From Siphonodentalium dalli (lineage: Eukaryota; Mollusca; Scaphopoda; Gadilida; Siphonodentaliidae), in assembly GCA_032622095.1 (NCBI GenBank), contig CP136061.1, positions 249,375,582-249,439,581 of the forward strand: DNA of 64,000 nucleotides, given 5' to 3'. A program made the translations under genes and the position numbers. Below, piece by piece: positions 5,316 through 44,417 of the stretch; the stretch's first letter is position 1, and the number at the start of each line of letters is the position of its first letter. The notes under the pieces are model-generated. The model did no database searches. It saw nothing but the letters and a program-made list of their open reading frames with translations, and had not been told where the DNA came from.

Positions 5316-7391
5316 GCAACCACAACGCGCCGCAGGCGCGTTGTTGCTTTTCATGTTTAGGCGTGAATGACGTCATTAATTTTTACAATACCATGAAACA
5401 GCATTTCGACGCGATGAAAATCCGGACAAGAAAAATGGGTTAAAAATCACGTGACTTCCGCTTCGCTTTCGCATAGAATCATGGGAACAATAATATCCCA
5501 AAAAGAAACGGTGACACAGAATCGGAAGTGGACCAACGGGATGGTTATAAAATTAACAACTTTAGTTTTTCTGAACAATTCCTACGTGATTTTGGCCTAT
5601 AGATTAGTTTCGTATGACCAATTTCGTTGGTTAGCTGAATAAAATCAGCGAAGACGTCATGACATGGTCCATGACGTCATTTGCGTCATTTGGTGTCGTG
5701 GGCTAGAATCCAGAAAAAATTGGTCTCCGCAGGAAACACTGATTTCACATCAGTATACTAGACTTGGTTGCATTTATAACCGTTTTCGCAAAAGATATAT
5801 GCGAAAATAGCACAAGCAAACGTGCCTGCTTCAGAATCAAATTACCACAGTTGAATAGCCAAGGATGTACCCTTTCCAACAATGTATAGCACGACATCGT
5901 GTGTTGCGCCGATGTTTACTTATGGTGTTTTGTAATAACGATCCCGCCTTAACTGCGTGTAATTTTCCTCCGGACAAATTGCTCAGCGAAAAATCCCCCT
6001 AATAGGCGGACAACACATTCAATAAGTTCCCGTCTCGCAACGATTTGGCCTCACAGACATATCGGCGGCTTATCAATTCCTTCGAGATAAATGATTGAAC
6101 CAATCTACCCTAACAAGGGGGATTTTTTCACGGTTGTATGTCGCGCGAATAGTATTGGCTGGCTGCCAGGTATTCACACTCAACATCGGAACGCGGCTTA
6201 TTATTTGAAATCATTTGTGAGCAGTGGTGGCAGCGAGGAAGTCAAATGATATGTCCATCATAACATGGGTCGCCTTCGTTGGTGAAGTTGGAATTAAGCC
6301 TCAACCAAATTTGTTGTCAAGTTGATGTGGGGGGCTTATATGACCTTGACCTTGACCATAAAATGACCTTGACCTCTGTTGAAAGACATCTCACTTAAAG
6401 GGCCATTTTGCTAGATATGTGTTGCGATGTACGCGCTAATGTCAATATGCAGAGGCCTTTTATAGCTATCCTTTAGAAATATACCGGTATTGAGGCTCCT
6501 ACATACTCGAGCCTGTATCTGACGAACAGAAACATGGGAGTACGATATCAATTTAAACTTGACCTCCATAAAGAATCTATTATATATTTGAGGAAAGTTT
6601 GTGGTCTGTGCGTGTGGGTGTGTGTGTATGTATGTGTGTGTGTGTTTCCGCGATGGAATCGGAAACGGCTAACCGATTTTGACGAAACTTGGTACGGGTA
6701 TGTAGTTTGACCTGAGGACTAACATGGGTATATCCGTTTGCCCGTGCGGCGTGACCTTGACCTTCAAATGACCTTGAACTCAAGTTCTCCGCTGAGCCGA
6801 TTTTCACCAAATTTGGTATGTGGGGGTAGTTTCAGGCGCTGAGCAATTTCGTCACACCCGGATGCCCGTGCGGCGTGAACTTGAGATTTTAAATGACATT
6901 GAACTCTATCTGGGTATCCACTGGGCCGATTTCCACCATTTTTTTGGGGGTGTTGGTGTAGATGGGGATGCCAACAAATTTCGTCTCACCCACATGCCCG
7001 TCAGACAGGTACCCAGCTAAAACCTAATGTATAGTTTGTGACTTTTGTCTGTTGGCTATGGCCGGGAAAACTTCCGGACGGATTTCGACGAAACTTGATA
7101 CCTAAGTGTACGTTTGTCCGGGAAGTGTTTTGGACGGGTCAAAGTGTGATGCTTGATCTTCAAAATGGTCTATTCAAGATCAAATCGGGTAATAGTGGCG
7201 GATTTCGACGATATTCGATAGCTAGGGATACTTTTGTCCGGGCAGTGTTTTGGACGGCTTAACTCGTAACCCCGACCTGACATTGACATTCAAAACGGTA
7301 AATTCAAGGTCAAATCTGGTCAAATTTCGCATAACTAGATCCGACGAAGCACCGCGTGTGGTTGCCCGTTACGTGTCACGTACGATCATAT
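5316..7391 (-). mobile_element. Element E, complete copy in array A
   Basis: It is 2,076 bp and has the same termini and landmarks as the copy at 2083-4158: a GCAACC hairpin end at 5316 and a GATCATAT end at 7391. The flanking TA dinucleotides are at 5314-5315 and 7392-7393. I saw no difference that would restore an open reading frame. Confidence 0.85.
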
Positions 7392-8546
7392 TACCCCTGG
7401 TCAGATGGTCCTGTTAATGTGCTATGATGCTGGTTATACTACCCCTGGTCAGGTGGTCCTGTTAATGTGCTATGATGCTGGTTATACTACCCCTGGTCAG
7501 GTGGTCCTGTTAATGTACTATGATGCTGGTTATACTACCCCTGGTCAGGTGGTCCTGTTAATGTACTATGATGCTGGTTATACCACCCCTGGTCAGATGG
7601 TCCTGTTAATGTGCTATGATGCTGGTTATACCACCCCTGGTCAGGTGGTCCTGTTAATGTGCTATGATGCTGGTTATACTACCCCTGGTCAGGTGGTCCT
7701 GTTAATGTGCTATGATGCTGGTTATACTACCCCTGGTCAGGTGGTCCTGTTAATGTACTATGATGCTGGTTATACCCCCCCCCCTGGTTAGGCGGCCCTG
7801 TTAATGTGCTATGATGCTGGTTATACTACCCCTGGTTAGGCGGCCCTGTTAATGTACTATGATGCTGGTTATACTACCCCTGGTCAGGCGGTCCTGTTAA
7901 TGTGCTATGATGCTGGTTATACTACCCCTGGTTAGGCGGCCCTGTTAATGTGCTATGATGCTGGTTATACTACCCCTGGTCAGGTGGTCCTGTTAATGTA
8001 CTATGATGCTGGTTATACTACCCCTGGTTAGGTGGTCCTGTTAATGTACTATGATGCTGGTTATACCACCCCTGGTTAGGCGGCCCTGTTAATGTGATAT
8101 GATGCTGGTTATACTACCCCTGGTCAGGCGGCCCTGTTAATGTACTATGATGCTGGTTATACTACCCCTGGTTAGGCGGCCCTGTTAATGTACTATGATG
8201 CTGGTTATACTACCCCTGGTCAGGCGGCCCTGTTAATGTACTATGATGCTGGTTATACTACCCCTGGTCAGGCGGCCCTGTTAATGTACTATGATGCTGG
8301 TTATACTACCCCCGGTCAGGCGGTCCTGTTAATGTACTATGATGCTGGTTATACTACCCCTGGTCAGGCGGCCATGTTAATGTACTATGATGCTGGTTAT
8401 ACTACCCCTGGTTAGGCGGCCCTGTTAATGTACTATGATGCTGGTTATACTACCCCAGGTTAGGCGGCCCTGTTAATGTACTATGATGCTGGTTATACCA
8501 CCCCTGGTCATGTGGTCCTGTTAATGTGCTATGATGCTGGTTATAC
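7392..8546. repeat. 48-bp minisatellite, 24 monomers
   Basis: It is 1,155 bp, with the same monomer order and the same 9-C insertion as the array at 4159-5313. Confidence 0.95.
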
Positions 8547-13319: not shown

Positions 13320-15366
13320 GCAACCACAACGCGCCGCAGGCGCGTTGTTGCTTTTCAAGTTTAGGCGTGAATGACGTCATTAATTTTTACAATACCATGA
13401 AACAGCATTTCGACGCGATGAAAATCCGGACAAGAAAAATGGGTTAAAAATCACGTGACTTCCGCTTCGCTTTCAACAAGAATCATTGGAACAATAATAT
13501 CCCAAAAAGAAACGGTGACACAGAATCGGAAGTGGACCAACGGGATGGTTATAAAATTAACAACTTTAGTTTTTCTGAACAATTCCTACGTGATGTTGGC
13601 CTATAGATTAGTTTCGTTTGACCAATTTCGTTGGTTAGCTGAATAAAATCAGCGAAGACGTCATGACATGGTCCATGACGTCATTTGCGTCATTTGGTGT
13701 TGTGGGCTAGAATCCAGAAAAAATTGGTCTCCGCAGGAAACACTGATTTCACATCAGTATACTAGACTTGGTTGCATTTATAACCGTTTTCGCAAAAGAT
13801 ATATGCGAAAATAGCACAAGCAAACGTGCCTGCTTCAGAATCAAATTACCACAGTTGAATAGCCAAGGATGTACCCTTTCCAACAATGTATAGCACGACA
13901 TCGTGTGTTGCGACGATGTTTACTTATGGTGTTTTGTAATAACGATCCCGCCTTAGCTGCGTGTAATTATCCTCCGGACAAATTGCTTAGCGAAAAATCC
14001 CCCTAATAGGCGGACAACATATTCAATAAGTTCCCGTCTCGCAACGATTTGGCCTCACAGACATATCAGCGGCTTATCAATTCCTTCGAGATAAATGATT
14101 GAACCAATCTACTCTAACAAGGGGGATTTTTTCACGGTTGTATGTCGCGCGAATAGTATTGGCTGGCTGCCAGGTATTCACACTCAACATCGGAACGCGG
14201 CTTATTATTTGAAATCATTTGTGAGCAGTGGTGGATGCGAGGAAGTCAAATTATATGTCCATCATAACATGGGTCGCCTTCGTTGGTGAACATGGAATTA
14301 AGCCTCAACCAAATTTGTTGTCAAGTTGATGTGGGGGGCTTATATGACCTTGACCTTGACCATAAAATGACCTTGACCTCTGTTGAAAGACATCTCACTT
14401 AAAGGGCCATTTTGCTAGATATGTGTTGCGATGTACGCGATAATGTCAATATTCAGAGGCCTTTTATAGCTATCCTTTAGAAATATACCGGTATCGAGGC
14501 TCCTACATACTCGAGTCTGTATCTGACGAACAGAAACATGGGAGTACGATATCAATTTAAACTTGACCTCCATAAAGAATCTATTATATATTTGAAGAAA
14601 GTTTGTGGTCTGTGCGTGTGGGTGTGTGTGTGTATGTATGTGTGTGTGTTTCCGCGATGGAATCGGAAACGGCTAACCGATTTTGATGAAACTTGGTACG
14701 GGTATGTAGTTTGACCTGGGGACTAACTTGGGTATATCCGTTTGCCCGTGCGGCGTGACCTTGACCTTCAAATGACCTTGAACTCAAGTTCTCCGCTGAG
14801 CCGATTTTCACCAAATTTGGTATGTGGGGGTAGTTTCAGGCGCTGAGCAATTTCGTCACACCCGGATGCCCGTGCGGCGTGAACTTGATATTTTAAATGA
14901 CATTGAACTGTATCTGGGTATCCACTGGCCCGATTGCCACCATTTTTTGGGGGTGTTGGTGTAGATGGGGATGCCAACAAATTTCGTCTCACCCACATGC
15001 CCGTCAGACAGGTACCCAGCTAAAACCTAATGTATAGTTTGTGACTTTTGTCTGTTAGCTATGGCCGGGAAAACTTCCGGACGAATTTCGACGAAACTTG
15101 ATACCTAAGTGTACGTTTGTCCGGGAAGTGTTTTGGACGGGTCAAAGTGTGATGCTTGATCTTCAAAATGGTCGATTCAAGATCAAATCGGGTATTAGTG
15201 GCGGATTTCGATAGCTAGGGATACTTTTGTCCGGGGAGTGTTTTGGACGGGTCAAATCGTGACATCGACCTGACCTTGACCTTCAAAATGGTCAATTCAA
15301 GGTCAAATCGCGCAATTCGCCGAAAAGCAGAAGGGAAACAGCCCGGTATGTATGTATCCATACGCC
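13320..15366 (-). mobile_element. Element E, right-truncated copy in array B (site 1)
   Basis: The left end (TA then GCAACC with hairpin) is intact and sits at the TA that is unoccupied in array C (37397-37398). The homologous body continues to about 15310, after which the canonical right end (GTGGTTGC inverted repeat, GATCATAT) is absent. About 55 bp of unmatched sequence leads directly into backbone at AACTACCA (15367). Compared with the empty site in array C, 1,137 bp of host sequence, including the protease exon, are missing here. A 12-bp segment (GACGATATTCGA) present in A and C is also missing near 15209. The copy is therefore broken and probably immobile. Confidence 0.8.
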
Positions 15367-15483: not shown

Positions 15484-15487
15484 TTAA

Positions 15488-15714: not shown

Positions 15715-15718
15715 TTAA

Positions 15719-17522: not shown

Positions 17523-17627
17523 TCGCTTCTACACATTAGTCATAAGAGTGTTCCCTGTATCATCTGTAAGGTTCATTTTGACTTGGAAATTTGTGAATTG
17601 AGGATTCAGGGGTATATGGTGGAGACC

Positions 17628-18118: not shown

Positions 18119-18488
18119 GGGTCTAAGTGGGCGTTTCGGTAGCTGGCTGATTAGAAGAGCATGCAATGGAACTACAATTACCAGTCGGTCCACAAGCAGG
18201 TCGGTAGAATGATTATTTGCCCGCCGTCAATTAGTGAGAAGATGCACACGCTTATAACAACCCTCGTGTCATAATAAATAAATTGTGATATGATAGTACC
18301 AAGCCGCCACTCTCACATTATAGACACATCTCAATCAATCAGCCCCGCCAATTTAAACACCCTTGCTGGACCGTCGAATGATATGGTTTAGTTGCCAAAA
18401 AAAAACGCAATACAAAAAATCGCAATATACAAAATAACTTATCCCCGCACACGATTGTTTAGCTTGACAACATAGAGACACTATTACT
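18119..18488. other. Backbone spacer containing the empty site 2
   Basis: About 370 bp with no gene. It contains the uninterrupted sequence CGTGTCATAATAAATAAATT near 18267-18286, the empty version of the target used by element E in array C. It also has an A9 run near 18397-18405. Confidence 0.75.
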
Positions 18489-18806: not shown

Positions 18807-20853
18807 GCAACCACAACGCGCCGCAGGCGCGTTGTTGCTTTTCAAGTTTAGGCGTGAATGACGTCATTAATTTTTACAATACCATGAAACAGCATTTCGA
18901 CGCGATGAAAATCCGGACAAGAAAAATGGGTTAAAAATCACGTGACTTCCGCTTCGCTTTCAACAAGAATCATTGGAACAATAATATCCCAAAAAGAAAC
19001 GGTGACACAGAATCGGAAGTGGACCAACGGGATGGTTATAAAATTAACAACTTTAGTTTTTCTGAACAATTCCTACGTGATGTTGGCCTATAGATTAGTT
19101 TCGTTTGACCAATTTCGTTGGTTAGCTGAATAAAATCAGCGAAGACGTCATGACATGGTCCATGACGTCATTTGCGTCATTTGGTGTTGTGGGCTAGAAT
19201 CCAGAAAAAATTGGTCTCCGCAGGAAACACTGATTTCACATCAGTATACTAGACTTGGTTGCATTTATAACCGTTTTCGCAAAAGATATATGCGAAAATA
19301 GCACAAGCAAACGTGCCTGCTTCAGAATCAAATTACCACAGTTGAATAGCCAAGGATGTACCCTTTCCAACAATGTATAGCACGACATCGTGTGTTGCGA
19401 CGATGTTTACTTATGGTGTTTTGTAATAACGATCCCGCCTTAGCTGCGTGTAATTATCCTCCGGACAAATTGCTTAGCGAAAAATCCCCCTAATAGGCGG
19501 ACAACATATTCAATAAGTTCCCGTCTCGCAACGATTTGGCCTCACAGACATATCAGCGGCTTATCAATTCCTTCGAGATAAATGATTGAACCAATCTACT
19601 CTAACAAGGGGGATTTTTTCACGGTTGTATGTCGCGCGAATAGTATTGGCTGGCTGCCAGGTATTCACACTCAACATCGGAACGCGGCTTATTATTTGAA
19701 ATCATTTGTGAGCAGTGGTGGATGCGAGGAAGTCAAATTATATGTCCATCATAACATGGGTCGCCTTCGTTGGTGAACATGGAATTAAGCCTCAACCAAA
19801 TTTGTTGTCAAGTTGATGTGGGGGGCTTATATGACCTTGACCTTGACCATAAAATGACCTTGACCTCTGTTGAAAGACATCTCACTTAAAGGGCCATTTT
19901 GCTAGATATGTGTTGCGATGTACGCGATAATGTCAATATTCAGAGGCCTTTTATAGCTATCCTTTAGAAATATACCGGTATCGAGGCTCCTACATACTCG
20001 AGTCTGTATCTGACGAACAGAAACATGGGAGTACGATATCAATTTAAACTTGACCTCCATAAAGAATCTATTATATATTTGAAGAAAGTTTGTGGTCTGT
20101 GCGTGTGGGTGTGTGTGTGTATGTATGTGTGTGTGTTTCCGCGATGGAATCGGAAACGGCTAACCGATTTTGATGAAACTTGGTACGGGTATGTAGTTTG
20201 ACCTGGGGACTAACTTGGGTATATCCGTTTGCCCGTGCGGCGTGACCTTGACCTTCAAATGACCTTGAACTCAAGTTCTCCGCTGAGCCGATTTTCACCA
20301 AATTTGGTATGTGGGGGTAGTTTCAGGCGCTGAGCAATTTCGTCACACCCGGATGCCCGTGCGGCGTGAACTTGATATTTTAAATGACATTGAACTGTAT
20401 CTGGGTATCCACTGGCCCGATTGCCACCATTTTTTGGGGGTGTTGGTGTAGATGGGGATGCCAACAAATTTCGTCTCACCCACATGCCCGTCAGACAGGT
20501 ACCCAGCTAAAACCTAATGTATAGTTTGTGACTTTTGTCTGTTAGCTATGGCCGGGAAAACTTCCGGACGAATTTCGACGAAACTTGATACCTAAGTGTA
20601 CGTTTGTCCGGGAAGTGTTTTGGACGGGTCAAAGTGTGATGCTTGATCTTCAAAATGGTCGATTCAAGATCAAATCGGGTATTAGTGGCGGATTTCGATA
20701 GCTAGGGATACTTTTGTCCGGGGAGTGTTTTGGACGGGTCAAATCGTGACATCGACCTGACCTTGACCTTCAAAATGGTCAATTCAAGGTCAAATCGCGC
20801 AATTCGCCGAAAAGCAGAAGGGAAACAGCCCGGTATGTATGTATCCATACGCC
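18807..20853 (-). mobile_element. Element E, right-truncated copy in array B
   Basis: Same as the copy at 13320-15366, offset by 5,487 bp: intact hairpin left end after TA, right end replaced by unmatched sequence. No difference seen by eye. Confidence 0.8.
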
Positions 20854-20974
20854 AACTACCAGAAGATACAGTATTATGTTGCTGGTGATACTTCGCATCA
20901 TCTTATGTTCCTATAATAATTTGGTATTAAGTTTTATTCTAAATGGGTTCTCACTCCCACTCGGTTATATTTAA

Positions 20975-21201
20975 CCCTTTGAGTGCCAGGGGCCGATCAC
21001 ATCGGCCCTAAACCTACAAAATAAGGCTGTTAAAGAATATAAGAATAAATTATTAAAATTGTAAAAAAAAAAAAAAAAATGTTAGGCCAATGCATTCTCT
21101 TATATATGCGAGGCGACCTATGGTCGACTCGCATATGTAAGAGAATGCATTGTCACAGGGTATATGGGTTGATACAAAAATCGGACCTGGCACTCAAAGG
21201 G
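20975..21201. mobile_element. piggyBac-type MITE, copy 2 in array B
   Basis: It is 227 bp with TTAA on both sides, 16-bp perfect terminal inverted repeats and a 17-A run, as in the copy at 15488-15714. Confidence 0.85.
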
Positions 21202-24200: not shown

Positions 24201-24293
24201 TTTATACCATAATTTGCTATGCTATTGTGTGTGTAACACCTATTTTGTAATTTTCATATTTACACCCTACTGTGGGTAGGCCTATACATCATA

Positions 24294-26340
24294 GCAACCA
24301 CAACGCGCCGCAGGCGCGTTGTTGCTTTTCAAGTTTAGGCGTGAATGACGTCATTAATTTTTACAATACCATGAAACAGCATTTCGACGCGATGAAAATC
24401 CGGACAAGAAAAATGGGTTAAAAATCACGTGACTTCCGCTTCGCTTTCAACAAGAATCATTGGAACAATAATATCCCAAAAAGAAACGGTGACACAGAAT
24501 CGGAAGTGGACCAACGGGATGGTTATAAAATTAACAACTTTAGTTTTTCTGAACAATTCCTACGTGATGTTGGCCTATAGATTAGTTTCGTTTGACCAAT
24601 TTCGTTGGTTAGCTGAATAAAATCAGCGAAGACGTCATGACATGGTCCATGACGTCATTTGCGTCATTTGGTGTTGTGGGCTAGAATCCAGAAAAAATTG
24701 GTCTCCGCAGGAAACACTGATTTCACATCAGTATACTAGACTTGGTTGCATTTATAACCGTTTTCGCAAAAGATATATGCGAAAATAGCACAAGCAAACG
24801 TGCCTGCTTCAGAATCAAATTACCACAGTTGAATAGCCAAGGATGTACCCTTTCCAACAATGTATAGCACGACATCGTGTGTTGCGACGATGTTTACTTA
24901 TGGTGTTTTGTAATAACGATCCCGCCTTAGCTGCGTGTAATTATCCTCCGGACAAATTGCTTAGCGAAAAATCCCCCTAATAGGCGGACAACATATTCAA
25001 TAAGTTCCCGTCTCGCAACGATTTGGCCTCACAGACATATCAGCGGCTTATCAATTCCTTCGAGATAAATGATTGAACCAATCTACTCTAACAAGGGGGA
25101 TTTTTTCACGGTTGTATGTCGCGCGAATAGTATTGGCTGGCTGCCAGGTATTCACACTCAACATCGGAACGCGGCTTATTATTTGAAATCATTTGTGAGC
25201 AGTGGTGGATGCGAGGAAGTCAAATTATATGTCCATCATAACATGGGTCGCCTTCGTTGGTGAACATGGAATTAAGCCTCAACCAAATTTGTTGTCAAGT
25301 TGATGTGGGGGGCTTATATGACCTTGACCTTGACCATAAAATGACCTTGACCTCTGTTGAAAGACATCTCACTTAAAGGGCCATTTTGCTAGATATGTGT
25401 TGCGATGTACGCGATAATGTCAATATTCAGAGGCCTTTTATAGCTATCCTTTAGAAATATACCGGTATCGAGGCTCCTACATACTCGAGTCTGTATCTGA
25501 CGAACAGAAACATGGGAGTACGATATCAATTTAAACTTGACCTCCATAAAGAATCTATTATATATTTGAAGAAAGTTTGTGGTCTGTGCGTGTGGGTGTG
25601 TGTGTGTATGTATGTGTGTGTGTTTCCGCGATGGAATCGGAAACGGCTAACCGATTTTGATGAAACTTGGTACGGGTATGTAGTTTGACCTGGGGACTAA
25701 CTTGGGTATATCCGTTTGCCCGTGCGGCGTGACCTTGACCTTCAAATGACCTTGAACTCAAGTTCTCCGCTGAGCCGATTTTCACCAAATTTGGTATGTG
25801 GGGGTAGTTTCAGGCGCTGAGCAATTTCGTCACACCCGGATGCCCGTGCGGCGTGAACTTGATATTTTAAATGACATTGAACTGTATCTGGGTATCCACT
25901 GGCCCGATTGCCACCATTTTTTGGGGGTGTTGGTGTAGATGGGGATGCCAACAAATTTCGTCTCACCCACATGCCCGTCAGACAGGTACCCAGCTAAAAC
26001 CTAATGTATAGTTTGTGACTTTTGTCTGTTAGCTATGGCCGGGAAAACTTCCGGACGAATTTCGACGAAACTTGATACCTAAGTGTACGTTTGTCCGGGA
26101 AGTGTTTTGGACGGGTCAAAGTGTGATGCTTGATCTTCAAAATGGTCGATTCAAGATCAAATCGGGTATTAGTGGCGGATTTCGATAGCTAGGGATACTT
26201 TTGTCCGGGGAGTGTTTTGGACGGGTCAAATCGTGACATCGACCTGACCTTGACCTTCAAAATGGTCAATTCAAGGTCAAATCGCGCAATTCGCCGAAAA
26301 GCAGAAGGGAAACAGCCCGGTATGTATGTATCCATACGCC
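24294..26340 (-). mobile_element. Element E, right-truncated copy in array B
   Basis: Third array B copy, at exactly 5,487-bp spacing from the previous one, with the same truncated right end. Confidence 0.8.
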
Positions 26341-26461
26341 AACTACCAGAAGATACAGTATTATGTTGCTGGTGATACTTCGCATCATCTTATGTTCCTA
26401 TAATAATTTGGTATTAAGTTTTATTCTAAATGGGTTCTCACTCCCACTCGGTTATATTTAA

Positions 26462-26688
26462 CCCTTTGAGTGCCAGGGGCCGATCACATCGGCCCTAAAC
26501 CTACAAAATAAGGCTGTTAAAGAATATAAGAATAAATTATTAAAATTGTAAAAAAAAAAAAAAAAATGTTAGGCCAATGCATTCTCTTATATATGCGAGG
26601 CGACCTATGGTCGACTCGCATATGTAAGAGAATGCATTGTCACAGGGTATATGGGTTGATACAAAAATCGGACCTGGCACTCAAAGGG
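26462..26688. mobile_element. piggyBac-type MITE, copy 3 in array B
   Basis: It is 227 bp, with the same terminal repeats, TTAA flanks and mismatched palindrome arm as the other B copies. Confidence 0.85.
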
Positions 26689-29600
26689 TTAATTTGGTAT
26701 CGCCACCATGGATGAGCCATGTTTTACTCCCGAAGCTGAAGAAATCGTAATTTAGGGGCGTCAAATGGGATTATGCATATTAACATTTTATACTATAGTA
26801 CCAGTTCGTGTGCTGTAATGAATTCGGTAATATTAGCCAGTGTGTGTTGTCATTGCCAACAAAATCACCTAACCTTCGTGACCATGACACATACGCGTGC
26901 AAAGTCAACCCGTTCAGAAGTATCGTGTCAACGTCTGGCGTCTACTAAACGTGTGGCGAAGAATAATCCTATCTTCTGCTAAACGAATGACCAATCAGCG
27001 CTGTGCAGCAGAGATTTTCCGTAGCGGAATTATTTTAATTTTATTGAAGCCAATTGTGGCTTCTTGTACTCGCATGTGTCCCGTAGCTAGTGGGGAGTGA
27101 TATATTGGCCGTGTAACGGGAACAAAATCAGGAGTCCATAAGTTTTGATAACTTTATATTTGTATAAGTCTCTGCCGGGAAGCACTGTGTAAACAGGTTA
27201 TGAAGAGGTGTTGCTGGTAGGTAAGTTCCGGGTGAAGTGCCGTTCTGTCTCTCAAGAACGGGTAGTTATTTTCTAGTATCGGTGGTATCATGTGTCCATA
27301 TAAGGTCTGAGGTATCATGATATACATGTTATCTATACGTTCACTATAGCGTATATCACACTATTGTTACTGGAGTATTCTATTTTTCTACCCATACCTG
27401 TGTTGTACAATGAATGCAACCAGTCATAGGCAATTAAGGTATGCTCTTATTAATTATGTGCATGTGTACGCTCGTATGCATCGTTGCATATGCCTCGCAT
27501 GTTACACGGTGCTTACCACTACATGATTAACCATATCAATACAACAGCGGGGAATGGAAGATTATCCCAGATCCGGGAACACATCAAACTCTATCTATCA
27601 TACTATCTTGTGTACTATCGGACACATGCCGTGGTTGGAACAGAACGGAAATTCAACATGCATGCATCATTCGTCGTGGTACTGATATGTGGATGAGCAC
27701 AAGGTGGCACATAAACAGCATAGAGTTGTCCTCCTTCATTAATGTTTAGGTTTTCTACACCAAATGTGTAGCCCTGCTACACAATCATTATAATCAATTT
27801 TGATCTTAAACATATTTGTGTAGTTTCATATTCATACACAAATTGTGTAACAATTTTTACACATAAATGGGTAAATTTATACAGATTTATACACAACTGT
27901 GTGCATAAAATCAACGCATATCCCTCATACATTTTGTGTAGGTTCTTACACACACAGTTCGTAGACAAGAAATGTAAGTTCAGTAGTCCGACCTGTGGGT
28001 ATATTATTAAAGATAAATGCATATTTATATGTTAAATCTTTCATGGCGTATAGTGGTATGTAGTATTTTGTTCTGTACTGTGTGAGATTTTGTTTTATAT
28101 TAACAATCCAGGGTCGTCGCGTAATTGCATAATATTAGTATTATTACAACAATCATAACAAAAGTCTAAGGGCAGTAATCGCCATGAAAGTTATAACAAA
28201 TAAATCCTTATATATTATTTATACTATACCCACAAATCGGAATTCTGAACTTACAATCCTTGTCTACGATCTATGTAGATTGCATGCTGAAAAAACAAAA
28301 TTCTCAAACAATATGGCCGTCATGCAGCAGAAGTTATGAATCTGAAAGTACCACAATGCGCATGCTCTACGATCTTACACAACTGTGTGTAACAGAATAT
28401 ACACAATATGTATAGAATGGCCCTTTGTCCATGTAGTTATATGTAAAACTATACATTGATGTGTGTGTTAATCGTGTTTACACATTACATGTGTAATCGC
28501 TTCTACACATTAGTCATAAGAGTGTTCCCTGTATCATCTGTAAGGTTCATTTTGACTTGGAAATTTGTGAATTGAGGATTCAGGGGTATATGGTGGAGAC
28601 CTTCGTCCGTCCGTCCATCATAGTGCATATTTTGTCCGCACTTTTTTCCAGAGTTATGTCCCTTTGCCAGAGATATGACTCAGGGTTTGTTTTGTCCGCA
28701 TTTTTTCCAGAGTAATGGTAATTTGCCAGAGCTATGAACCGGGGTTAAACTGAGAGAAATGTCCCACTATTACTTTATTTTCTCTATATATATAGCCAAT
28801 ATTGAGCGTAGAGTCGGAGGTATTGGCCCACTCTTGGCGTTGCCCTTCTTTGTCATTGGGATTCGTGTTTTGAGGTATTGGAGCTGATAAAATTAGTCAT
28901 TTATGATATCATTTAATGACAACAAATAAACACATGTCAATTATAGTGCTGATAAATACGTAGGAGTGTAACTCAGTGAATGGTCACCTTTCACATAATG
29001 AACTACTACACATGGTTTAAACCTACAGTGACGGTCCAACCAAACCTACAGTGACGGTCCAACCAAACCTACAGTGACGGTCCAACCAAACCGGGTCTAA
29101 GTGGGCGTTTCGGTAGCTGGCTGATTAGAAGAGCATGCAATGGAACTACAATTACCAGTCGGTCCACAAGCAGGTCGGTAGAATGATTATTTGCCCGCCG
29201 TCAATTAGTGAGAAGATGCACACGCTTATAACAACCCTCGTGTCATAATAAATAAATTGTGATATGATAGTACCAAGCCGCCACTCTCACATTATAGACA
29301 CATCTCAATCAATCAGCCCCGCCAATTTAAACACCCTTGCTGGACCGTCGAATGATATGGTTTAGTTGCCAAAAAAAAACGCAATACAAAAAATCGCAAT
29401 ATACAAAATAACTTATCCCCGCACACGATTGTTTAGCTTGACAACATAGAGACACTATTACTGAAATGAAAGCTGGTCTGGCTGACCTGAGGTATCGGGT
29501 TTAAACCACTGATTTAGTTGTAAAACCTAAATGTTTGTGTAACCAAGTTAAAACCGAATATGAAGAAGTGTGTTTTCAAAATACATTAACGTATCTGGCC

Positions 29601-29780
29601 CTGCGTGTTTGTACACTGACATGATAACATGTGTGTTAAAATCATCGAACAAACAAGATATCACGATGAAGAGTCAGATGAATTCATTTTATACCATAAT
29701 TTGCTATGCTATTGTGTGTGTAACACCTATTTTGTAATTTTCATATTTACACCCTACTGTGGGTAGGCCTATACATCATA

Positions 29781-31827
29781 GCAACCACAACGCGCCGCAG
29801 GCGCGTTGTTGCTTTTCAAGTTTAGGCGTGAATGACGTCATTAATTTTTACAATACCATGAAACAGCATTTCGACGCGATGAAAATCCGGACAAGAAAAA
29901 TGGGTTAAAAATCACGTGACTTCCGCTTCGCTTTCAACAAGAATCATTGGAACAATAATATCCCAAAAAGAAACGGTGACACAGAATCGGAAGTGGACCA
30001 ACGGGATGGTTATAAAATTAACAACTTTAGTTTTTCTGAACAATTCCTACGTGATGTTGGCCTATAGATTAGTTTCGTTTGACCAATTTCGTTGGTTAGC
30101 TGAATAAAATCAGCGAAGACGTCATGACATGGTCCATGACGTCATTTGCGTCATTTGGTGTTGTGGGCTAGAATCCAGAAAAAATTGGTCTCCGCAGGAA
30201 ACACTGATTTCACATCAGTATACTAGACTTGGTTGCATTTATAACCGTTTTCGCAAAAGATATATGCGAAAATAGCACAAGCAAACGTGCCTGCTTCAGA
30301 ATCAAATTACCACAGTTGAATAGCCAAGGATGTACCCTTTCCAACAATGTATAGCACGACATCGTGTGTTGCGACGATGTTTACTTATGGTGTTTTGTAA
30401 TAACGATCCCGCCTTAGCTGCGTGTAATTATCCTCCGGACAAATTGCTTAGCGAAAAATCCCCCTAATAGGCGGACAACATATTCAATAAGTTCCCGTCT
30501 CGCAACGATTTGGCCTCACAGACATATCAGCGGCTTATCAATTCCTTCGAGATAAATGATTGAACCAATCTACTCTAACAAGGGGGATTTTTTCACGGTT
30601 GTATGTCGCGCGAATAGTATTGGCTGGCTGCCAGGTATTCACACTCAACATCGGAACGCGGCTTATTATTTGAAATCATTTGTGAGCAGTGGTGGATGCG
30701 AGGAAGTCAAATTATATGTCCATCATAACATGGGTCGCCTTCGTTGGTGAACATGGAATTAAGCCTCAACCAAATTTGTTGTCAAGTTGATGTGGGGGGC
30801 TTATATGACCTTGACCTTGACCATAAAATGACCTTGACCTCTGTTGAAAGACATCTCACTTAAAGGGCCATTTTGCTAGATATGTGTTGCGATGTACGCG
30901 ATAATGTCAATATTCAGAGGCCTTTTATAGCTATCCTTTAGAAATATACCGGTATCGAGGCTCCTACATACTCGAGTCTGTATCTGACGAACAGAAACAT
31001 GGGAGTACGATATCAATTTAAACTTGACCTCCATAAAGAATCTATTATATATTTGAAGAAAGTTTGTGGTCTGTGCGTGTGGGTGTGTGTGTGTATGTAT
31101 GTGTGTGTGTTTCCGCGATGGAATCGGAAACGGCTAACCGATTTTGATGAAACTTGGTACGGGTATGTAGTTTGACCTGGGGACTAACTTGGGTATATCC
31201 GTTTGCCCGTGCGGCGTGACCTTGACCTTCAAATGACCTTGAACTCAAGTTCTCCGCTGAGCCGATTTTCACCAAATTTGGTATGTGGGGGTAGTTTCAG
31301 GCGCTGAGCAATTTCGTCACACCCGGATGCCCGTGCGGCGTGAACTTGATATTTTAAATGACATTGAACTGTATCTGGGTATCCACTGGCCCGATTGCCA
31401 CCATTTTTTGGGGGTGTTGGTGTAGATGGGGATGCCAACAAATTTCGTCTCACCCACATGCCCGTCAGACAGGTACCCAGCTAAAACCTAATGTATAGTT
31501 TGTGACTTTTGTCTGTTAGCTATGGCCGGGAAAACTTCCGGACGAATTTCGACGAAACTTGATACCTAAGTGTACGTTTGTCCGGGAAGTGTTTTGGACG
31601 GGTCAAAGTGTGATGCTTGATCTTCAAAATGGTCGATTCAAGATCAAATCGGGTATTAGTGGCGGATTTCGATAGCTAGGGATACTTTTGTCCGGGGAGT
31701 GTTTTGGACGGGTCAAATCGTGACATCGACCTGACCTTGACCTTCAAAATGGTCAATTCAAGGTCAAATCGCGCAATTCGCCGAAAAGCAGAAGGGAAAC
31801 AGCCCGGTATGTATGTATCCATACGCC
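29781..31827 (-). mobile_element. Element E, right-truncated copy in array B (last)
   Basis: Fourth and last site-1 copy. The unit it opens is transitional: it runs into site 2 occupied by the first array C element (34784), giving 5,003 bp instead of 5,487. Confidence 0.8.
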
Positions 31828-34505: not shown

Positions 34506-34625
34506 AAACCTACAGTGACGGTCCAACCAAACCTACAGTGACGGTCCAACCAAACCTACAGTGACGGTCCAACCAAACCTACAGTGACGGTCCAACCAAA
34601 CCTACAGTGACGGTCCAACCAAACC
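34506..34625. repeat. 23-bp tandem repeat, 5 copies at the B/C junction
   Basis: Five copies plus a partial, more than any other unit. Diagnostic bases to the left are B-type (for example CACAACTG near 33866 and a 6-T run near 34129). Bases just to the right are C-type (CAGGCGGTCTAC near 34689). The array change therefore coincides with this repeat, consistent with unequal exchange inside it. Confidence 0.9.
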
Positions 34626-34783
34626 GGGTCTAAGTGGGCGTTTCGGTAGCTGGCTGATTAGAAGAGCATGCAATGGAACTACAATTACCAGGCGGTCTAC
34701 AAGCAGGTCGGTAGAATGATTATTTGCCCGCCGTCAATTAGTGAGAAGATGCACACGCTTATAACAACCCTCGTGTCATAATA

Positions 34784-36865
34784 GCAACCACAACGCGCCG
34801 CAGGCGCGTTGTTGCTTTTCAAGTTTAGGCGTGAATGACGTCATTAATTTTTACAATACCATGAAACAGCATTTCGACGCGATGAAAATCCGGACAAGAA
34901 AAATGGGTTAAAAAAATCACGTGACTTCCGCTTCGCTTTCGCATAGAATCATGGGAACAATAATATCCCAAAAAGTAACGGTGACACAGAATCGGAAGTG
35001 GACCAACGGGATGGTTATAAAATTAACAACTTTAGTTTTTCTGAACAATTCCTACGTGATTTTGGCCTATAGATTAGTTTCGTTTGACCAATTTCGTTGG
35101 TTAGCTGAATAAAATCAGCGAAGACGTCATGACATGGTCCATGACGTCATTTGCGTAATTTGGTGTTGTGGGCTAGAATCCAGAAAAAATTGGTCTCCGC
35201 AGGAAACACTGATTTCACATCAGTATACTAGACTTGGTTGCATTTATAACCGTTTTCGCAAAAGATATATGCGAAAATAGCACAAGCAAACGTGCCTGCT
35301 TCAGAATCAAATTACCACAGTTGAATAGCCAAGGATGTACCCTTTCCAACAATGTATAGCACGACATCGTGTGTTGCGCCGATGTTTACTTATGGTGTTT
35401 TGTAATAACGATCCCGCCTTAGCCGCGTGTAATTTTCCTCCGGACAAATTGCTCAGCGAAAAATCCCCCTAATAGGCGGACAACACATTCAATAAGTTCC
35501 CGTCTCGCAACGATTTGGCCTCACAGACATATCAGCGGCTTATCAATTCCTTCGAGATAAATGATTGAACCAATCTACCCTAACAAGGGGGATTTGTTCA
35601 CGGTTGTATGTCGCGCGAATAGTATTGGCTGGCTGCCAGGTATTCACACTCAACATCGGAACGCGGCTTATTATTTGAAATCATTTGTGAGCAGTGGTGG
35701 CGGAGAGGAAGTCAAATTATATGTCCATCATAACATGGGTCGCCTTCGTTGGTGAATGTGGAATTAAGCCTCAACCAAATTTGTTGTCAAGTTGATGTGG
35801 GGGGCTTATATGACCTTGACCTTGACCATAAAATGACCTTGACCTCTGTTGAAAGACATCTCACTTAAAGGGCCATTTTGCTAGATATGTGTTGCGATGT
35901 ACGCGCTAATGTCAATATTCAGAGGCCTTTTATAGCTATCCTTTAGAAATATACCGGTATCGAGGCTCCTACATACTCGAGTCTGTATCTGACGAACAGA
36001 AACATGGGAGTACGATATCAATTTAAACTTGACCTCCACAAAGAATTTATTATATATTTGAAGAAAGTTTGTGGTCTGTGCGTGTGGGTGTGTGTGTATG
36101 TATGTATGTGTGTGTGTGTTTCCGCGATGGAATCGGAAACGGCTAACCGATTTTGATGAAACTTGGTACGGGTATGTAGTTTGACCTGAGGACTAACATG
36201 GGTATATCCGTTTGCCCGTGCGGCGTGACCTTGACCTTCAAATGACCTTGAACTCAAGTTCTCCGCTGAGCCGATTTTCACCAAATTTGGTATGTGGGGG
36301 TAGTTTCAGGCGCTGAGCAATTTCGTCACACCCGGATGCCCGTGCGGCGTGAAATTGATATTTTAAATGACATTGAACTGTATCTGGGTATCCACTGGGC
36401 CGATTTCCACCATTTTTTGGGGGTGTTGGTGTAGATGGGGATGCCAACAAATTTCGTCTCACCCACATGCCCGTCAGACAGGTACCCAGCTAAAACCTAA
36501 TGTATAGTTTGTGACTTTTGTCTGTTAGCTATGGCCGGGAAAACTTCCGGACGGATTTCGACGAAACTTGATACCTAAGTGTACGTTTGTCCGGGAAGTG
36601 TTTTGGACGGGTCAAAGTGTGATGCTTGATCTTCAAAATGGTCGATTCAAGATCAAATCAGGTATTAGTGGCGGATTTCGACGATATTCGATAGCTAGGG
36701 ATACTTTTGTCCGGGCAGTGTTTTGGACGGCTTAACTCGTAACCCCGACCTGACATTGACATTCAAAACGGTAAATTCAAAGTCGAATCTGGTCAAATTT
36801 CGCATAACTAGATCCGACGAAGCACCGCGTGTGGTTGCCCCGTTACGTGTCACGTACGATCATAT
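34784..36865 (-). mobile_element. Element E, complete copy in array C (site 2)
   Basis: It is 2,082 bp. The left junction is CGTGTCATAA-TA-GCAACC and the right junction GATCATAT-TA-AATAAATTG; the empty site in array B has a single TA between the same flanks. This gives a direct before/after comparison of an insertion. Hairpin, asymmetric inverted repeats, palindrome near the right end (TACGTGTCACGTA) and internal modules are as in array A. It has two extra A bases near 34911-34917 relative to later C copies. Confidence 0.88.
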
Positions 36866-36867
36866 TA

Positions 36868-37398
36868 AATAAATTGTGATATGATAGTACAAAGCCGCCA
36901 CTCTCACATTATAGACACATCTCAATCAATCAGCCCCGCCAATTTAAACACCCTTGCTGGACCGTCGAATGATATGGTTTAGTTGCCAAAAAAAAAACGC
37001 AATACAAAAAATCGCAATATACAAAATAACTTATCCCCGCACACGATTGTTTAGCTTGACAACATAGAGACACTATTACTGAAATGAAAGCTGGTCTGGC
37101 TGACCTGAGGTATCGGGTTTAAACCACTGATTTAGTTGTAAAACCTAAATGTTTGTGTAACCAAGTTAAAACCGAATATGAAGAAGTGTGTTTTCAAAAT
37201 ACATTAACGTATCTGGCCCTGCGTGTTTGTACACTGACATGATAACATGTGTGTTAAAATCATCGAACAAACAAGATATCACGATGAAGAGTCAGATGAA
37301 TTCATTTTATACCATAATTTGCTATGCTATTGTGTGTGTAACACCTATTTTGTAATTTTCATATTTACACCCTACTGTGGGTAGGCCTATACATCATA
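36868..37398. other. Backbone between site 2 and site 1
   Basis: About 530 bp, AT-rich with an A10 run, no gene seen. It ends at the TA (37397-37398) that is the unoccupied site 1. Confidence 0.6.
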
Positions 37399-37725
37399 GT
37401 TCATATATGTTGTTGTTATATCAATTAAATATGAGGAGAATTGCCTACATTTCAATAAAAAGTAACTGAATGGTGTTATATGCACTATGAAACAGATGAC
37501 TGGGTTTATCAAGTGACTGCTGGCTTGGATACAATCTGACGTCATGACGTAAATGTGTGCATCACTACGCGTGACGCACGTTACTTATAGCGTCGTGTGT
37601 GTCTCTCTCGTTGATGATGCATTCTAAAAGTAAACAGCAGAGTAGTTTAATTCGCAAAACAAATCAAAACTAACAATTATGGCATAAATAAAATACATCC
37701 ATAGCAGCCGATAGTACTAAATGTT

Positions 37726-37799
37726 CACCACTCGTGGTATTGTGGTTTTAACCACTCGCCAAAAGGCTTGTGGTTAAAACCACAATACCACCCGTGGTG
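37726..37799. repeat. 74-bp hairpin (30-bp arms) next to the protease exon
   Basis: The arms begin CACCAC and end GTGGTG; 28 of 30 positions pair and the loop is about 14 bp. It starts about 50 bp past the protease stop codon, inside the presumed 3' untranslated region, so in a transcript it would form a strong stem. No target duplication was evident, so a MITE identity is not supported. Confidence 0.8.
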
Positions 37800-37847
37800 A
37801 AAATTTGGTGCTCTCGGCTAAAACGGTGTATTCTATAGATATCAGCG

Positions 37848-38027
37848 CTATCCCGCTGGAGGGGTGTATAGCCTAATCTGACTGTTAATCCAATCAATGT
37901 ATGACGAAACGCGTGTGTAAACGTTCGGAAAATTGGGCGTGTTGCATGCATAGCTCCCCCACGATGTGATTCCTGCCAGAACGTAAGATCCCCGTCTGAA
38001 GCACACCAATGGACTTCCGGAGTCGCC
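37848..38027 (-). CDS. Terminal exon of a trypsin-like S1 serine protease (gene fragment)
   Basis: The minus strand encodes 59 residues and a TAG stop. The exon starts with GDSGSP, holding the catalytic Ser195 and oxyanion Gly193, and continues with GITSWG (substrate-binding 214-216), Cys220 and [17 protein letters not shown], the usual S1 C-terminus. A polypyrimidine tract and CAG acceptor lie immediately upstream (38028 onward). An intron just before GDSG is a known position in trypsin genes. Oddities: GDSGSP instead of GDSGGP, and Asn at the position that is normally Gly226 in the specificity pocket. A possible ATTAAA poly-A signal lies at 37646-37651 (minus). No upstream exon with the His or Asp catalytic residues was found in the unit, so the fragment cannot make an active protease alone. 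Confidence 0.85.
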
Positions 38028-38652
38028 CTGAAACAGAGATAACAAAGAAACATCATATACGTACATCAGTACATGAGAGCTAATTTTATCAATACATATA
38101 GCTACTAGCAATTATTAATTAAAAGAGCTAAGATTAAAGGTGGATTATCTCTTCCGCAACATGGTCTATATAGTTTCCTGGGTTTGAAATAATGAATACG
38201 AATCGAAGACCCCTGTCCTGAAACGCGTCTATCAATTATTATTGATTTTATTTGGAATTTTGTTCGTATAAAATAACTCTGTGCCGTTCAATGATGGTCC
38301 CTGATATTCACGGCCGTCTTTTTTATTTTAGTTTTTTAGTTATTTTCAGTTATTTTAATCATTGACAATATGCTACACTGTAGGTCTTATTTACTTGATT
38401 CGCACTTAATATTACAATATATACACTCAATCGGAGACTTTTTGCGCCTCGCATTGATTCGGAGCACCGTACTGGAGGCCTCTATATAAAAGTTATATAT
38501 ATATAGAACAAATAAGTGTCCCATTAATTGAATAAAACTACCACAAGATACAGTATTATGTTGCTGGTGATACTTCGCATCATCTTATGTTCCTAAAATA
38601 ATTTGGTATTAAGTTTTATTCTAAATGGGTTCTCACTCCCACTCGGTTATAT

Positions 38653-41222: not shown

Positions 41223-41319
41223 AAACCTACAGTGACGGTCCAACCAAACCTACAGTGACGGTCCAACCAAACCTACAGTGACGGTCCAACCAAACCTACA
41301 GTGACGGTCCAACCAAACC
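41223..41319. repeat. 23-bp tandem repeat, 4 copies (array C type)
   Basis: Four copies plus a partial; the same count is seen at 47914-48010, 54605-54701 and 61296-61392. Confidence 0.9.
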
Positions 41320-41477: not shown

Positions 41478-43557
41478 GCAACCACAACGCGCCGCAGGCG
41501 CGTTGTTGCTTTTCAAGTTTAGGCGTGAATGACGTCATTAATTTTTACAATACCATGAAACAGCATTTCGACGCGATGAAAATCCGGACAAGAAAAATGG
41601 GTTAAAAATCACGTGACTTCCGCTTCGCTTTCGCATAGAATCATGGGAACAATAATATCCCAAAAAGTAACGGTGACACAGAATCGGAAGTGGACCAACG
41701 GGATGGTTATAAAATTAACAACTTTAGTTGTTCTGAACAATTCCTACGTGATTTTGGCCTATAGATTAGTTTCGTTTGACCAATTTCGTTGGTTAGCTGA
41801 ATAAAATCAGCGAAGACGTCATGACATGGTCCATGACGTCATTTGCGTAATTTGGTGTTGTGGGCTAGAATCCAGAAAAAATTGGTCTCCGCAGGAAACA
41901 CTGATTTCACATCAGTATACTAGACTTGGTTGCATTTATAACCGTTTTCGCAAAAGATATATGCGAAAATAGCACAAGCAAACGTGCCTGCTTCAGAATC
42001 AAATTACCACAGTTGAATAGCCAAGGATGTACCCTTTCCAACAATGTATAGCACGACATCGTGTGTTGCGCCGATGTTTACTTATGGTGTTTTGTAATAA
42101 CGATCCCGCCTTAGCCGCGTGTAATTTTCCTCCGGACAAATTGCTCAGCGAAAAATCCCCCTAATAGGCGGACAACACATTCAATAAGTTCCCGTCTCGC
42201 AACGATTTGGCCTCACAGACATATCAGCGGCTTATCAATTCCTTCGAGATAAATGATTGAACCAATCTACCCTAACAAGGGGGATTTGTTCACGGTTGTA
42301 TGTCGCGCGAATAGTATTGGCTGGCTGCCAGGTATTCACACTCAACATCGGAACGCGGCTTATTATTTGAAATCATTTGTGAGCAGTGGTGGCGGAGAGG
42401 AAGTCAAATTATATGTCCATCATAACATGGGTCGCCTTCGTTGGTGAATGTGGAATTAAGCCTCAACCAAATTTGTTGTCAAGTTGATGTGGGGGGCTTA
42501 TATGACCTTGACCTTGACCATAAAATGACCTTGACCTCTGTTGAAAGACATCTCACTTAAAGGGCCATTTTGCTAGAAATGTGTTGCGATGTACGCGCTA
42601 ATGTCAATATTCAGAGGCCTTTTATAGCTATCCTTTAGAAATATACCGGTATCGAGGCTCCTACATACTCGAGTCTGTATCTGACGAACAGAAACATGGG
42701 AGTACGATATCAATTTAAACTTGACCTCCACAAAGAATTTATTATATATTTGAAGAAAGTTTGTGGTCTGTGCGTGTGGGTGTGTGTGTATGTATGTATG
42801 TGTGTGTGTGTTTCCGCGATGGAATCGGAAACGGCTAACCGATTTTGATGAAACTTGGTACGGGTATGTAGTTTGACCTGAGGACTAACATGGGTATATC
42901 CGTTTGCCCGTGCGGCGTGACCTTGACCTTCAAATGACCTTGAACTCAAGTTCTCCGCTGAGCCGATTTTCACCAAATTTGGTATGTGGGGGTAGTTTCA
43001 GGCGCTGAGCAATTTCGTCACACCCGGATGCCCGTGCGGCGTGAAATTGATATTTTAAATGACATTGAACTGTATCTGGGTATCCACTGGGCCGATTTCC
43101 ACCATTTTTTGGGGGTGTTGGTGTAGATGGGGATGCCAACAAATTTCGTCTCACCCACATGCCCGTCAGACAGGTACCCAGCTAAAACCTAATGTATAGT
43201 TTGTGACTTTTGTCTGTTAGCTATGGCCGGGAAAACTTCCGGACGGATTTCGACGAAACTTGATACCTAAGTGTACGTTTGTCCGGGAAGTGTTTTGGAC
43301 GGGTCAAAGTGTGATGCTTGATCTTCAAAATGGTCGATTCAAGATCAAATCAGGTATTAGTGGCGGATTTCGACGATATTCGATAGCTAGGGATACTTTT
43401 GTCCGGGCAGTGTTTTGGACGGCTTAACTCGTAACCCCGACCTGACATTGACATTCAAAACGGTAAATTCAAAGTCGAATCTGGTCAAATTTCGCATAAC
43501 TAGATCCGACGAAGCACCGCGTGTGGTTGCCCCGTTACGTGTCACGTACGATCATAT
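41478..43557 (-). mobile_element. Element E, complete copy in array C
   Basis: It is 2,080 bp, at site 2 with TA on both sides (41476-41477, 43558-43559). It has a private A (AGAAATG instead of AGATATG near 42578). Confidence 0.88.
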
Positions 43558-44417
43558 TAAATAAATTGTGATATGATAGTACAAAGCCGCCACTCTCACA
43601 TTATAGACACATCTCAATCAATCAGCCCCGCCAATTTAAACACCCTTGCTGGACCGTCGAATGATATGGTTTAGTTGCCAAAAAAAAAACGCAATACAAA
43701 AAATCGCAATATACAAAATAACTTATCCCCGCACACGATTGTTTAGCTTGACAACATAGAGACACTATTACTGAAATGAAAGCTGGTCTGGCTGACCTGA
43801 GGTATCGGGTTTAAACCACTGATTTAGTTGTAAAACCTAAATGTTTGTGTAACCAAGTTAAAACCGAATATGAAGAAGTGTGTTTTCAAAATACATTAAC
43901 GTATCTGGCCCTGCGTGTTTGTACACTGACATGATAACATGTGTGTTAAAATCATCGAACAAACAAGATATCACGATGAAGAGTCAGATGAATTCATTTT
44001 ATACCATAATTTGCTATGCTATTGTGTGTGTAACACCTATTTTGTAATTTTCATATTTACACCCTACTGTGGGTAGGCCTATACATCATAGTTCATATAT
44101 GTTGTTGTTATATCAATTAAATATGAGGAGAATTGCCTACATTTCAATAAAAAGTAACTGAATGGTGTTATATGCACTATGAAACAGATGACTGGGTTTA
44201 TCAAGTGACTGCTGGCTTGGATACAATCTGACGTCATGACGTAAATGTGTGCATCACTACGCGTGACGCACGTTACTTATAGCGTCGTGTGTGTCTCTCT
44301 CGTTGATGATGCATTCTAAAAGTAAACAGCAGAGTAGTTTAATTCGCAAAACAAATCAAAACTAACAATTATGGCATAAATAAAATACATCCATAGCAGC
44401 CGATAGTACTAAATGTT

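What the first reader, a model, noticed from the sequence alone, without database searches (positions are those of the whole stretch)
34784..36865. Element E: a ~2.08-kb transposon with asymmetric inverted repeats, a terminal hairpin and a TA target, possibly an undescribed family
Seen: three insertion contexts with matching empty sites in this window. Site 2 is empty in array B and filled in array C. The minisatellite monomer gives the empty state for array A. Site 1 is empty in array C and filled in array B (left junction only). In the two complete cases one TA becomes TA-element-TA; in all three the left junction is TA-GCAACC. The left end carries GCAACCACAACGCGCC and folds on itself; a related inverted copy sits ~26 bp inside the right end. 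Known: asymmetric inverted repeats, a palindrome at one end and internal tandem repeats describe Helentron-type non-autonomous elements, including pearl-like elements of bivalves. However, canonical Helitrons insert at A^T and Helentrons at T^T, and the array A site offers neither. Inference: either a TA-duplicating DNA transposon with unusual ends or a Helitron-like variant with TA preference.
Basis: partly seen in the sequence, partly recalled or inferred. Interest (0 to 1): 0.8.

Follow-up and report, generated by a model that had tools for sequence, protein, structure and literature searches.

The report
Rolling-circle transposon with five-letter target
The element is real, mobile DNA: a non-coding, Helitron2/Helentron-like (rolling-circle type) transposon that inserts just after the letters T-N-N-T-A, a sequence that also forms its own tail, so copies often sit head-to-tail.

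Summary
E is a repeat family in a 2.23-Gb genome (36 full-length rows among 41 matches; 448 left ends; 1,766 right ends). Joining the flanks of 34784-36867 gives the empty site (79 of 80 bases) and, in array A, the minisatellite (78 of 80).

The 'TA duplication' is better read differently. 294 of 297 exact left ends follow T-N-N-T-A, as do 48 of 48 non-redundant, non-stacked left flanks, mostly WTWWTA. Right ends read ATATTA, then show no preference (A at +3 in 114 of 347). The target is one-sided and resembles the element's own 3' end. That argues against a symmetric TA-duplicating DDE transposon.

The ends meet the published Helitron2 description: ATIR in a 5' hairpin, 3' ATIR 29 bp inside, then a palindrome; the interior follows the HINE plan. 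Published HINEs prefer TT; fungal FoHeli1/2 prefer TNAT^A, nearly E's motif. 32 exact head-to-tail junctions exist.

No autonomous partner with these ends was found, although the genome holds long Helentron reading frames. Verdict: a new variant of a known kind, not a new class.

The parts
34784..36867 (+). Element E, complete copy in array C; 2,084 bp when the constant terminal TA on the right is counted as its own
34779..34783 (+). Target motif TAATA (T-N-W-T-A), present in the empty site, immediately 5' of the element
   Evidence: genome-wide 294 of 297 exact left ends
34784..34815 (+). 5' terminal hairpin; its first part GCAACCACAACGCG is the 5' asymmetric terminal inverted repeat (ATIR)
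   Evidence: fold; second stem type with changes on both arms in relatives
36077..36119 (+). TG/TGTA microsatellite just upstream of the central repeats
36147..36474 (+). Degenerate central tandem repeats, about 125 bp apart
   Evidence: self-alignment, 68% over 204 columns
36550..36793 (+). Second pair of degenerate tandem repeats, 120 bp apart
36826..36838 (-). 3' ATIR CGCGTGTGGTTGC (inverted copy of the 5' ATIR), 29 bp from the 3' end
36845..36855 (+). 3' palindrome ACGTGTCACGT
   Evidence: the right-end 20-mer that holds it has 1,766 hits against 11 for the reversed control
36862..36867 (+). 3' terminus ATATTA, which fits the target motif WTWWTA
18262..18291 (+). Empty site 2 in array B (same site as the insertion at 34784, without E)
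37384..37413 (+). Empty site 1 in array C (filled, left junction only, at 13320, 18807, 24294, 29781)
13320..15309 (+). First of four 3'-truncated E copies of array B (others start at 18807, 24294, 29781)
5316..7393 (+). One of the E copies inserted in the 48-bp minisatellite of array A (others at 2083, 8549, at 11155 cut by an N gap, and a right part at 1-928)
41478..43559 (+). Second complete E copy of array C (others at 48169, 54860, 61551)

Best explanation
E is a non-autonomous element of the Helitron2/Helentron group (HINE-type in anatomy) that moves by rolling-circle transposition with a HUH-type Rep/helicase supplied from elsewhere. SHOWN: its anatomy; many dispersed copies; insertion 3' of T-N-N-T-A (usually WTWWTA) with no preference downstream; a constant 3' terminus ATATTA of the same form, so that no target duplication needs to be assumed. 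INFERRED: the Rep cuts the same WTWWTA^ motif in the target and at the element's 3' end; the 5' hairpin and the pairing of the two ATIRs mark start and stop; joining yields TNNTA-element-rest of target. Because the 3' end is itself a target-like motif, new copies can be placed directly behind old ones, giving head-to-tail stacks. INFERRED too: the large tandem arrays of the window arose later by amplification of units that already held E.
For: Left flank: of 86 left ends read in L001-L119, 37 were dropped as alike (all 37 have the motif), 49 kept, one a head-to-tail junction; the other 48 all have TNNTA, 46 TNWTA. Genome-wide 294 of 297 exact left ends. Right flank: 33 of 33 ATTA, then no preference in 32; mirror-image A at +3 in 114 of 347 G-type right ends, against about 0.31 A in the left flanks (binomial p 0.35; left versus right Fisher p about 3e-82, with array copies not removed). 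Joined flanks give the empty state at two sites. 5' hairpin far below shuffles. Two stem types in relatives differ by changes on both arms that keep pairing. 5' and 3' ATIR cores match in E, F and G. Microsatellite and central repeats as in Cg_HINE (PMC7492417, passages read). 32 exact head-to-tail junctions, 28 of them with the right-end type that has 347 exact copies. The host has Helentron frames with PIF1 helicase and Exo_endo_phos domains; 15 rows at 44-46% identity lie in open frames of 2,577 aa or more, without stops in the match.
Against: No element with E's ends and a Rep/helicase was found. Helentron slices (3' side: ten entries under five provisional family labels, plus L076/L077; 5' side: seven slices) show no E-like end: single weak motif matches occur, never palindrome and terminus together. 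The outer boundaries of those Helentrons were not reached. Comparing lists by eye, no listed exact right end (C1 and the start of C2; C1, C2, start of C3) lies within 15 kb of a listed Rep or helicase hit; the nearest pair, C2:97.72 and 97.74 Mb, is 18 kb apart on opposite strands. E begins with G under the TA^ reading, whereas Helitron2 elements tend to begin with T. Published HINEs prefer TT. The ATIR of E alone is only moderately beyond chance (3 of 2,000 shuffles). ATIR matching is not family-specific (F left end scores 23 with E's right end and 24 with its own; G left scores 22 with E's and 18 with its own). The folded 3' end is not unusual (72 of 1,000 shuffles as stable).
Confidence: 0.87

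Rival explanations
1. A cut-and-paste DDE transposon (Tc1/mariner-like) with degenerate ends that duplicates TA.
For: At the two complete window sites one TA becomes TA-element-TA; 48 of 48 left flanks end in TA.
Against: The target is one-sided: T at -5 in 294 of 297 left ends, but mirror A in only 114 of 347 right ends, and 28 or so of these 114 are head-to-tail junctions whose next letters GCA supply the A. No inverted repeats at both outer termini; the right inverted copy lies 29 bp inside.
Confidence: 0.04
2. A circular element integrated by a tyrosine or serine recombinase (Crypton- or IS607-like), with a six-base core WTWWTA in the target and ATATTA in the circle.
For: The same data fit a core shared by circle and target: left copy from the target, right copy from the element, single copy at head-to-tail junctions.
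Against: It does not explain the 5' hairpin with paired changes, the asymmetric inverted repeats and the 3' palindrome, which Helitron2 elements have (PMC3627910, section 9 read). No recombinase was searched for.
Confidence: 0.06
3. Head-to-tail stacks are rolling-circle multimers from read-through of the 3' end, not separate insertions behind an old copy (a rival to that one step of the model, compatible with the rest).
For: Junctions are exact and join ends of like type: of eight junctions fetched, an E/G-type left end follows an E right end in L138 and L139 and a G right end in L141-L144, and another, F-like left end follows an F right end in L137 and L140 (E and G left ends are not told apart in 60 bases, and F's left end is inferred from these two). 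Tandem Helitrons by bypass of the termination signal are described (PMC4067079, passages read).
Against: In both stacked pairs read in full the two copies differ: L040, 93% identical with different inner structure; L045, an E copy followed by a G copy, 92% over the shared 451 columns. The WTWWTA target explains why the 3' end can be a target.
Confidence: 0.35

Closest known systems
FoHeli1 and FoHeli2, Helitron2-type elements of Fusarium oxysporum (PMC5148889; section 6 and passages read)
   Same: 5' hairpin, asymmetric inverted repeats with the 3' one subterminal, AT-rich 3' terminus (ATATTTT there, ATATTA here), preferred insertion between TNAT and A
   Different: Those are about 5-6 kb and encode Rep/helicase, and their 5' end is TCAG or similar; E is non-coding, lies in a 2.2-Gb genome of unknown species, starts GCAACC, and -3 may be A or T
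HINEs: Cg_HINE of Pacific oyster (PMC7492417, first part and passages read), DINE-1 and mite HINEs (PMC4067079, passages read), Pearl elements as described there
   Same: 5' subterminal repeat with an adjacent complementary repeat, microsatellite, central tandem repeats, 3' subterminal repeat, 3' palindrome, no need for a target duplication, no coding capacity
   Different: Those prefer TT or T-rich sites; E has a near-strict one-sided T-N-N-T-A
Helitron2 as described by PMC3627910 (section 9 and passages read)
   Same: ATIRs, 5' hairpin, 3' ATIR about 20-30 bp from the end just upstream of a 3' hairpin
   Different: Target cited for Helitron2 is TTTT^T/C (PMC5148889); first base T preferred; Rep/helicase not found for E
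IS91 and IS200/IS605 elements (recalled, no call tests them)
   Same: One-sided target motif, element end resembling the target, no duplication
   Different: Bacterial, other ends; analogy of mechanism only

Membership tests
Helitron2 (PMC3627910) | Short ATIR of 8-15 bp, 0-2 bp from the 5' end | tested here: met
   GCAACCACAACGCG at the 5' end
Helitron2 (PMC3627910) | 5' terminal hairpin that includes part or all of the ATIR | tested here: met
   Fold and shuffles; two stem types with paired changes
[quoted passage not shown]
   29 bp (36838 to 36867); palindrome ACGTGTCACGT at 36845-36855; its fold alone is not extreme (72 of 1,000 shuffles)
Helitron2 (PMC3627910) | 5' end begins with T | tested here: inconclusive
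   The border can be drawn before, inside or after the TA; T, A or G as first base follows from that choice
Helitron2 (PMC3627910) | Rep/helicase of the Helitron2 branch in the autonomous partner | tested here: inconclusive
   Helentron frames exist but none could be tied to E's ends
Helentron / HINE (PMC4067079, PMC7492417) | Subterminal inverted repeats, 3' palindrome, microsatellite, central tandem repeats | tested here: met
Helentron / HINE (PMC4067079, PMC7492417) | Insertion in TT / T-rich sequence | tested here: not met
   48 of 48 left flanks end T-N-N-T-A; 294 of 297
Canonical Helitron (Helitron1) | 5' TC, 3' CTRR, insertion at A^T | tested here: not met
   Ends are GCAACC and CATATTA, target TNNTA
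Tc1/mariner | Terminal inverted repeats at both outer ends and a symmetric TA target | tested here: not met
Crypton / serine-recombinase elements | Recombinase gene in the partner | not tested
   No recombinase family was searched

The most novel reading that the evidence does not exclude
A Helitron2-type family that reads a near-strict five-base, one-sided target which its own 3' terminus copies, so that each insertion creates a preferred landing site for the next one. Self-targeting, not only replication read-through, then builds head-to-tail stacks and seeds satellite-like arrays, three of which in this window carry E at different sites.
Probability: 0.35. Interest if true: 0.68.

Novelty: new variant of a known kind. 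Interest (0 to 1): 0.52.

Why it matters
How Helitron2/Helentron elements choose sites is loosely described: the papers seen here give 'TT' or 'T-rich', with the exact border unclear. This family gives a sharp motif with hundreds of usable junctions, shows that specificity lies on one side only, and links it to the element's own end. It also gives a concrete, testable route from a dispersed transposon to tandem stacks, and brings a second, distant case close to the TNAT^A rule reported for fungal FoHeli elements.

Tried and rejected
Symmetric TA-duplicating DDE transposon: disfavoured by the one-sided target.

Long relatives as autonomous partners: pairing listed left and right ends by proximity gives candidates of 8.8-15.4 kb (C1:93024004-93039425, C1:8122139-8131823, C1:256906508-256920593, C2:4621793-4630603, C2:34507658-34517742, C3:13159980-13173699). 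Proximity does not prove one element. One slice each of two of them: L135 is a minisatellite of about 93 bp with two frames of 103 and 115 codons in it, L136 has no frame of 100 codons or more. The first 3.9 kb of one (L041) has no stop-to-stop frame above 164 codons. What was read looks non-coding; most of their length was not read.

Helentrons as partners: slices around L078, L079, L120-L134 show no E-like ends. The element ends were not reached, so this is open, not negative. Stretches shared by family F and Helentron flanks were short, recur in several places and were not used.

Chance as the cause of T at -5: about 4e-24 for 48 of 48 at the local T content.

Host species: not determined. 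Dfam/Repbase: not available. A TA or TNNTA target in animal Helentrons was not seen in the listings, nor in the passages read; this does not show that none is in print.

Full report
What is there. The window comes from contig C1 of an unnamed 2.23-Gb genome in nine contigs. E (34784-36867) is one of 14 whole or partial copies in three adjacent tandem arrays. Array A: E inserted in a 48-bp minisatellite, unit about 3.2 kb. Array B: a 5.49-kb unit with an E that lacks its right end. Array C: a 6.69-kb unit related to B, with E at another place. The three arrays hold E at three different sites; full copies in A are 98.1-98.2%, the copies in B 97.1% and those in C 99.8-100% identical to the copy reported. 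Three separate insertions are likely.

Genome-wide. A search with E returned 41 matches, 36 of them full length, with 5,366 first-look candidates. Its 32-base left end occurs 448 times with up to 3 mismatches, the reversed control 0 times. The 20-base right end occurs 1,766 times with up to 2 mismatches, control 11; the two tolerances differ. Relatives: G, 1.15 to about 1.6 kb in the copies read, matches the first 447 bases (83-90%) and the last 37 bases (89%) of E (L039, L040, L042, L044, L045). F has the same right end and another body with repeats of about 110 bp (many of L049-L071). Longer relatives are inferred only from pairs of ends.

The junctions. Joining the flanks of 34784-36867 gives the empty site 2 in 79 of 80 bases, and in array A an uninterrupted minisatellite in 78 of 80. 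For the left flanks I took every locus of L001-L119 with the exact 32-base left end: 86 occurrences, of which 37 were dropped because 30 or more of 40 flank bases equal those of a kept one (all 37 have TNNTA), leaving 49. One is a head-to-tail junction; of the other 48, all have T at -5, T at -2 and A at -1; -3 is A or T in 46, and -6 is A or T in 43. Genome-wide, 297 exact 25-base left ends exist and 294 are preceded by TNNTA (array copies not removed). On the right, 58 ends were read, 25 dropped as alike, and 33 of 33 go on as ATTA; leaving out one head-to-tail junction, the following bases in 32 show no preference. For the G-type right end, 114 of 347 have A at +3, which is background, and this includes the junctions whose next letters are GCA. 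The left and right counts are not from the same copies. In all three pre-insertion sites of the window the motif is there before insertion (TAATA, TCATA, TACTA).

What this means for the borders. 'TA becomes TA-element-TA' is true but can be read as TA^, T^A or ^TA. Because the right-hand ATATTA is constant and itself fits WTWWTA, the simplest reading is that the right-hand TA is the element's own and that no duplication occurs. The same cut at the same motif in donor and target would explain both junctions and the shared TA of stacked copies. This is inference.

The ends. The 5' end folds into a hairpin more stable than any of 1,000 single-base shuffles. Among eight left ends that I picked because they differ, there are two stem types, AACGCGCC/GGCGCGTT and ACAGCGCC/GGCGCTGT, which differ at two neighbouring positions on both arms and stay paired; two of the eight have one G-T pair (read off; the multiple alignment misplaces one gap, so no pair count was made). 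The 3' ATIR matches the 5' ATIR in 13 of 14 columns in E, 12 of 12 in L137 and 9 of 9 in L140 (F, from two neighbouring copies) and 9 of 9 in G; matches across families score about as well, so this is a shared core, not a family-specific fit. A palindrome follows, then ATATTA. Inside, a TG microsatellite precedes degenerate repeats of about 120-125 bp. The longest stop-to-stop frame is 103 codons.

Head-to-tail stacks. The exact junction of a right end with a left end occurs 32 times: 28 with the G-type right end, of which 347 exact copies exist, about 8%, and 4 with the A-type. Chance insertion into one given TNNTA among tens of millions (my estimate, no call) cannot give this. Either own 3' ends are preferred targets or rolling-circle read-through makes multimers. 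Two stacks were read in full, L040 (one of the 32) and L045 (a variant junction, not among them); both join unequal copies, which favours repeated insertion for these two. Eight of the other 31 junctions were read for 155 bases each: neighbours are of like type, which does not decide.

A helper. The genome codes for Helentrons. PF14214 gives 151 matches, 150 of 457 candidates having been scored. One locus, L078, has a PIF1 helicase and a C-terminal Exo_endo_phos domain. A search with that protein gave 63 matches, among them 15 rows at 44-46% identity in open frames of at least 2,577 aa with no stop in the match. The helper is therefore inferred.

Known relatives. The Helitron2 description (PMC3627910, section 9 and passages) and the HINE plan (PMC4067079, passages; PMC7492417, the first of seven parts and passages) fit the anatomy. 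The target does not fit the TT given there. FoHeli1/2 of Fusarium oxysporum (PMC5148889, section 6 and passages) insert between TNAT and A, the closest match among the papers seen; that paper's figure legend says 'TNAT' and 'T', its text 'TNAT' and 'A'. I therefore file E as Helitron2-like and HINE-type in anatomy, with a variant target, and not as a strict HINE by target.

Limits. Counts from the pattern tool include array copies. Most pattern listings reach only contigs C1-C3, so nearly all flanks read come from there. The host is unknown, and whether the family has a name in Repbase or Dfam was not testable.

Noticed in passing
window 1-12901, 13320-31770, 34784-64000: Three adjacent macrosatellite-like arrays (units about 3.2, 5.5 and 6.7 kb) each carry E at a different site; other E copies elsewhere also lie at regular multi-kb spacings (for example C9:29.69-29.76 Mb, C9:181.15-181.26 Mb, C3:80.53-80.56 Mb). 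Whether E promotes such arrays or only rides in them is open.
   Followed up: partly
window 12902-13001: A run of 100 N at the border of arrays A and B: probably an assembly gap, so this border is not reliable.
   Followed up: no
window 15309/15310 and the same point in the three other B units: In array B the right end of E and about 1.1 kb of the unit (about 37399-38535 in array C) are missing together, with some 57 unaligned bases at the seam, so one deletion may have removed both.
   Followed up: partly
window 37726-37799: A long imperfect palindrome (CACCACTCGTGGTATTGTGGTTTTAACCACTCGCC...) in the array C unit, possibly a separate small foldback element.
   Followed up: no
window 34506-34625, 18045-18118, 41223-41319: A 23-bp tandem repeat (AAACCTACAGTGACGGTCCAACC) differs in copy number between units of the arrays: 3.2, 4.2 or 5.2 copies; usable as a marker of array history.
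   Followed up: no
L083 (C1:274778454) and array A: Two E-type insertions in what looks like the same 48-bp minisatellite at places three bases apart, after GGTTATA and after GGTTATACTA; both obey T-N-N-T-A.
   Followed up: no
L019, L027, L080 (C1:109825000, C1:235729065, C1:256920562): The left flanks of these copies (in L019 CCATACGTATTGACGTAATCATATTA; L080 was dropped as alike) look like the 3' end of yet another family with a palindrome-like stretch and a similar terminus, so stacking may also occur behind other families.
   Followed up: no
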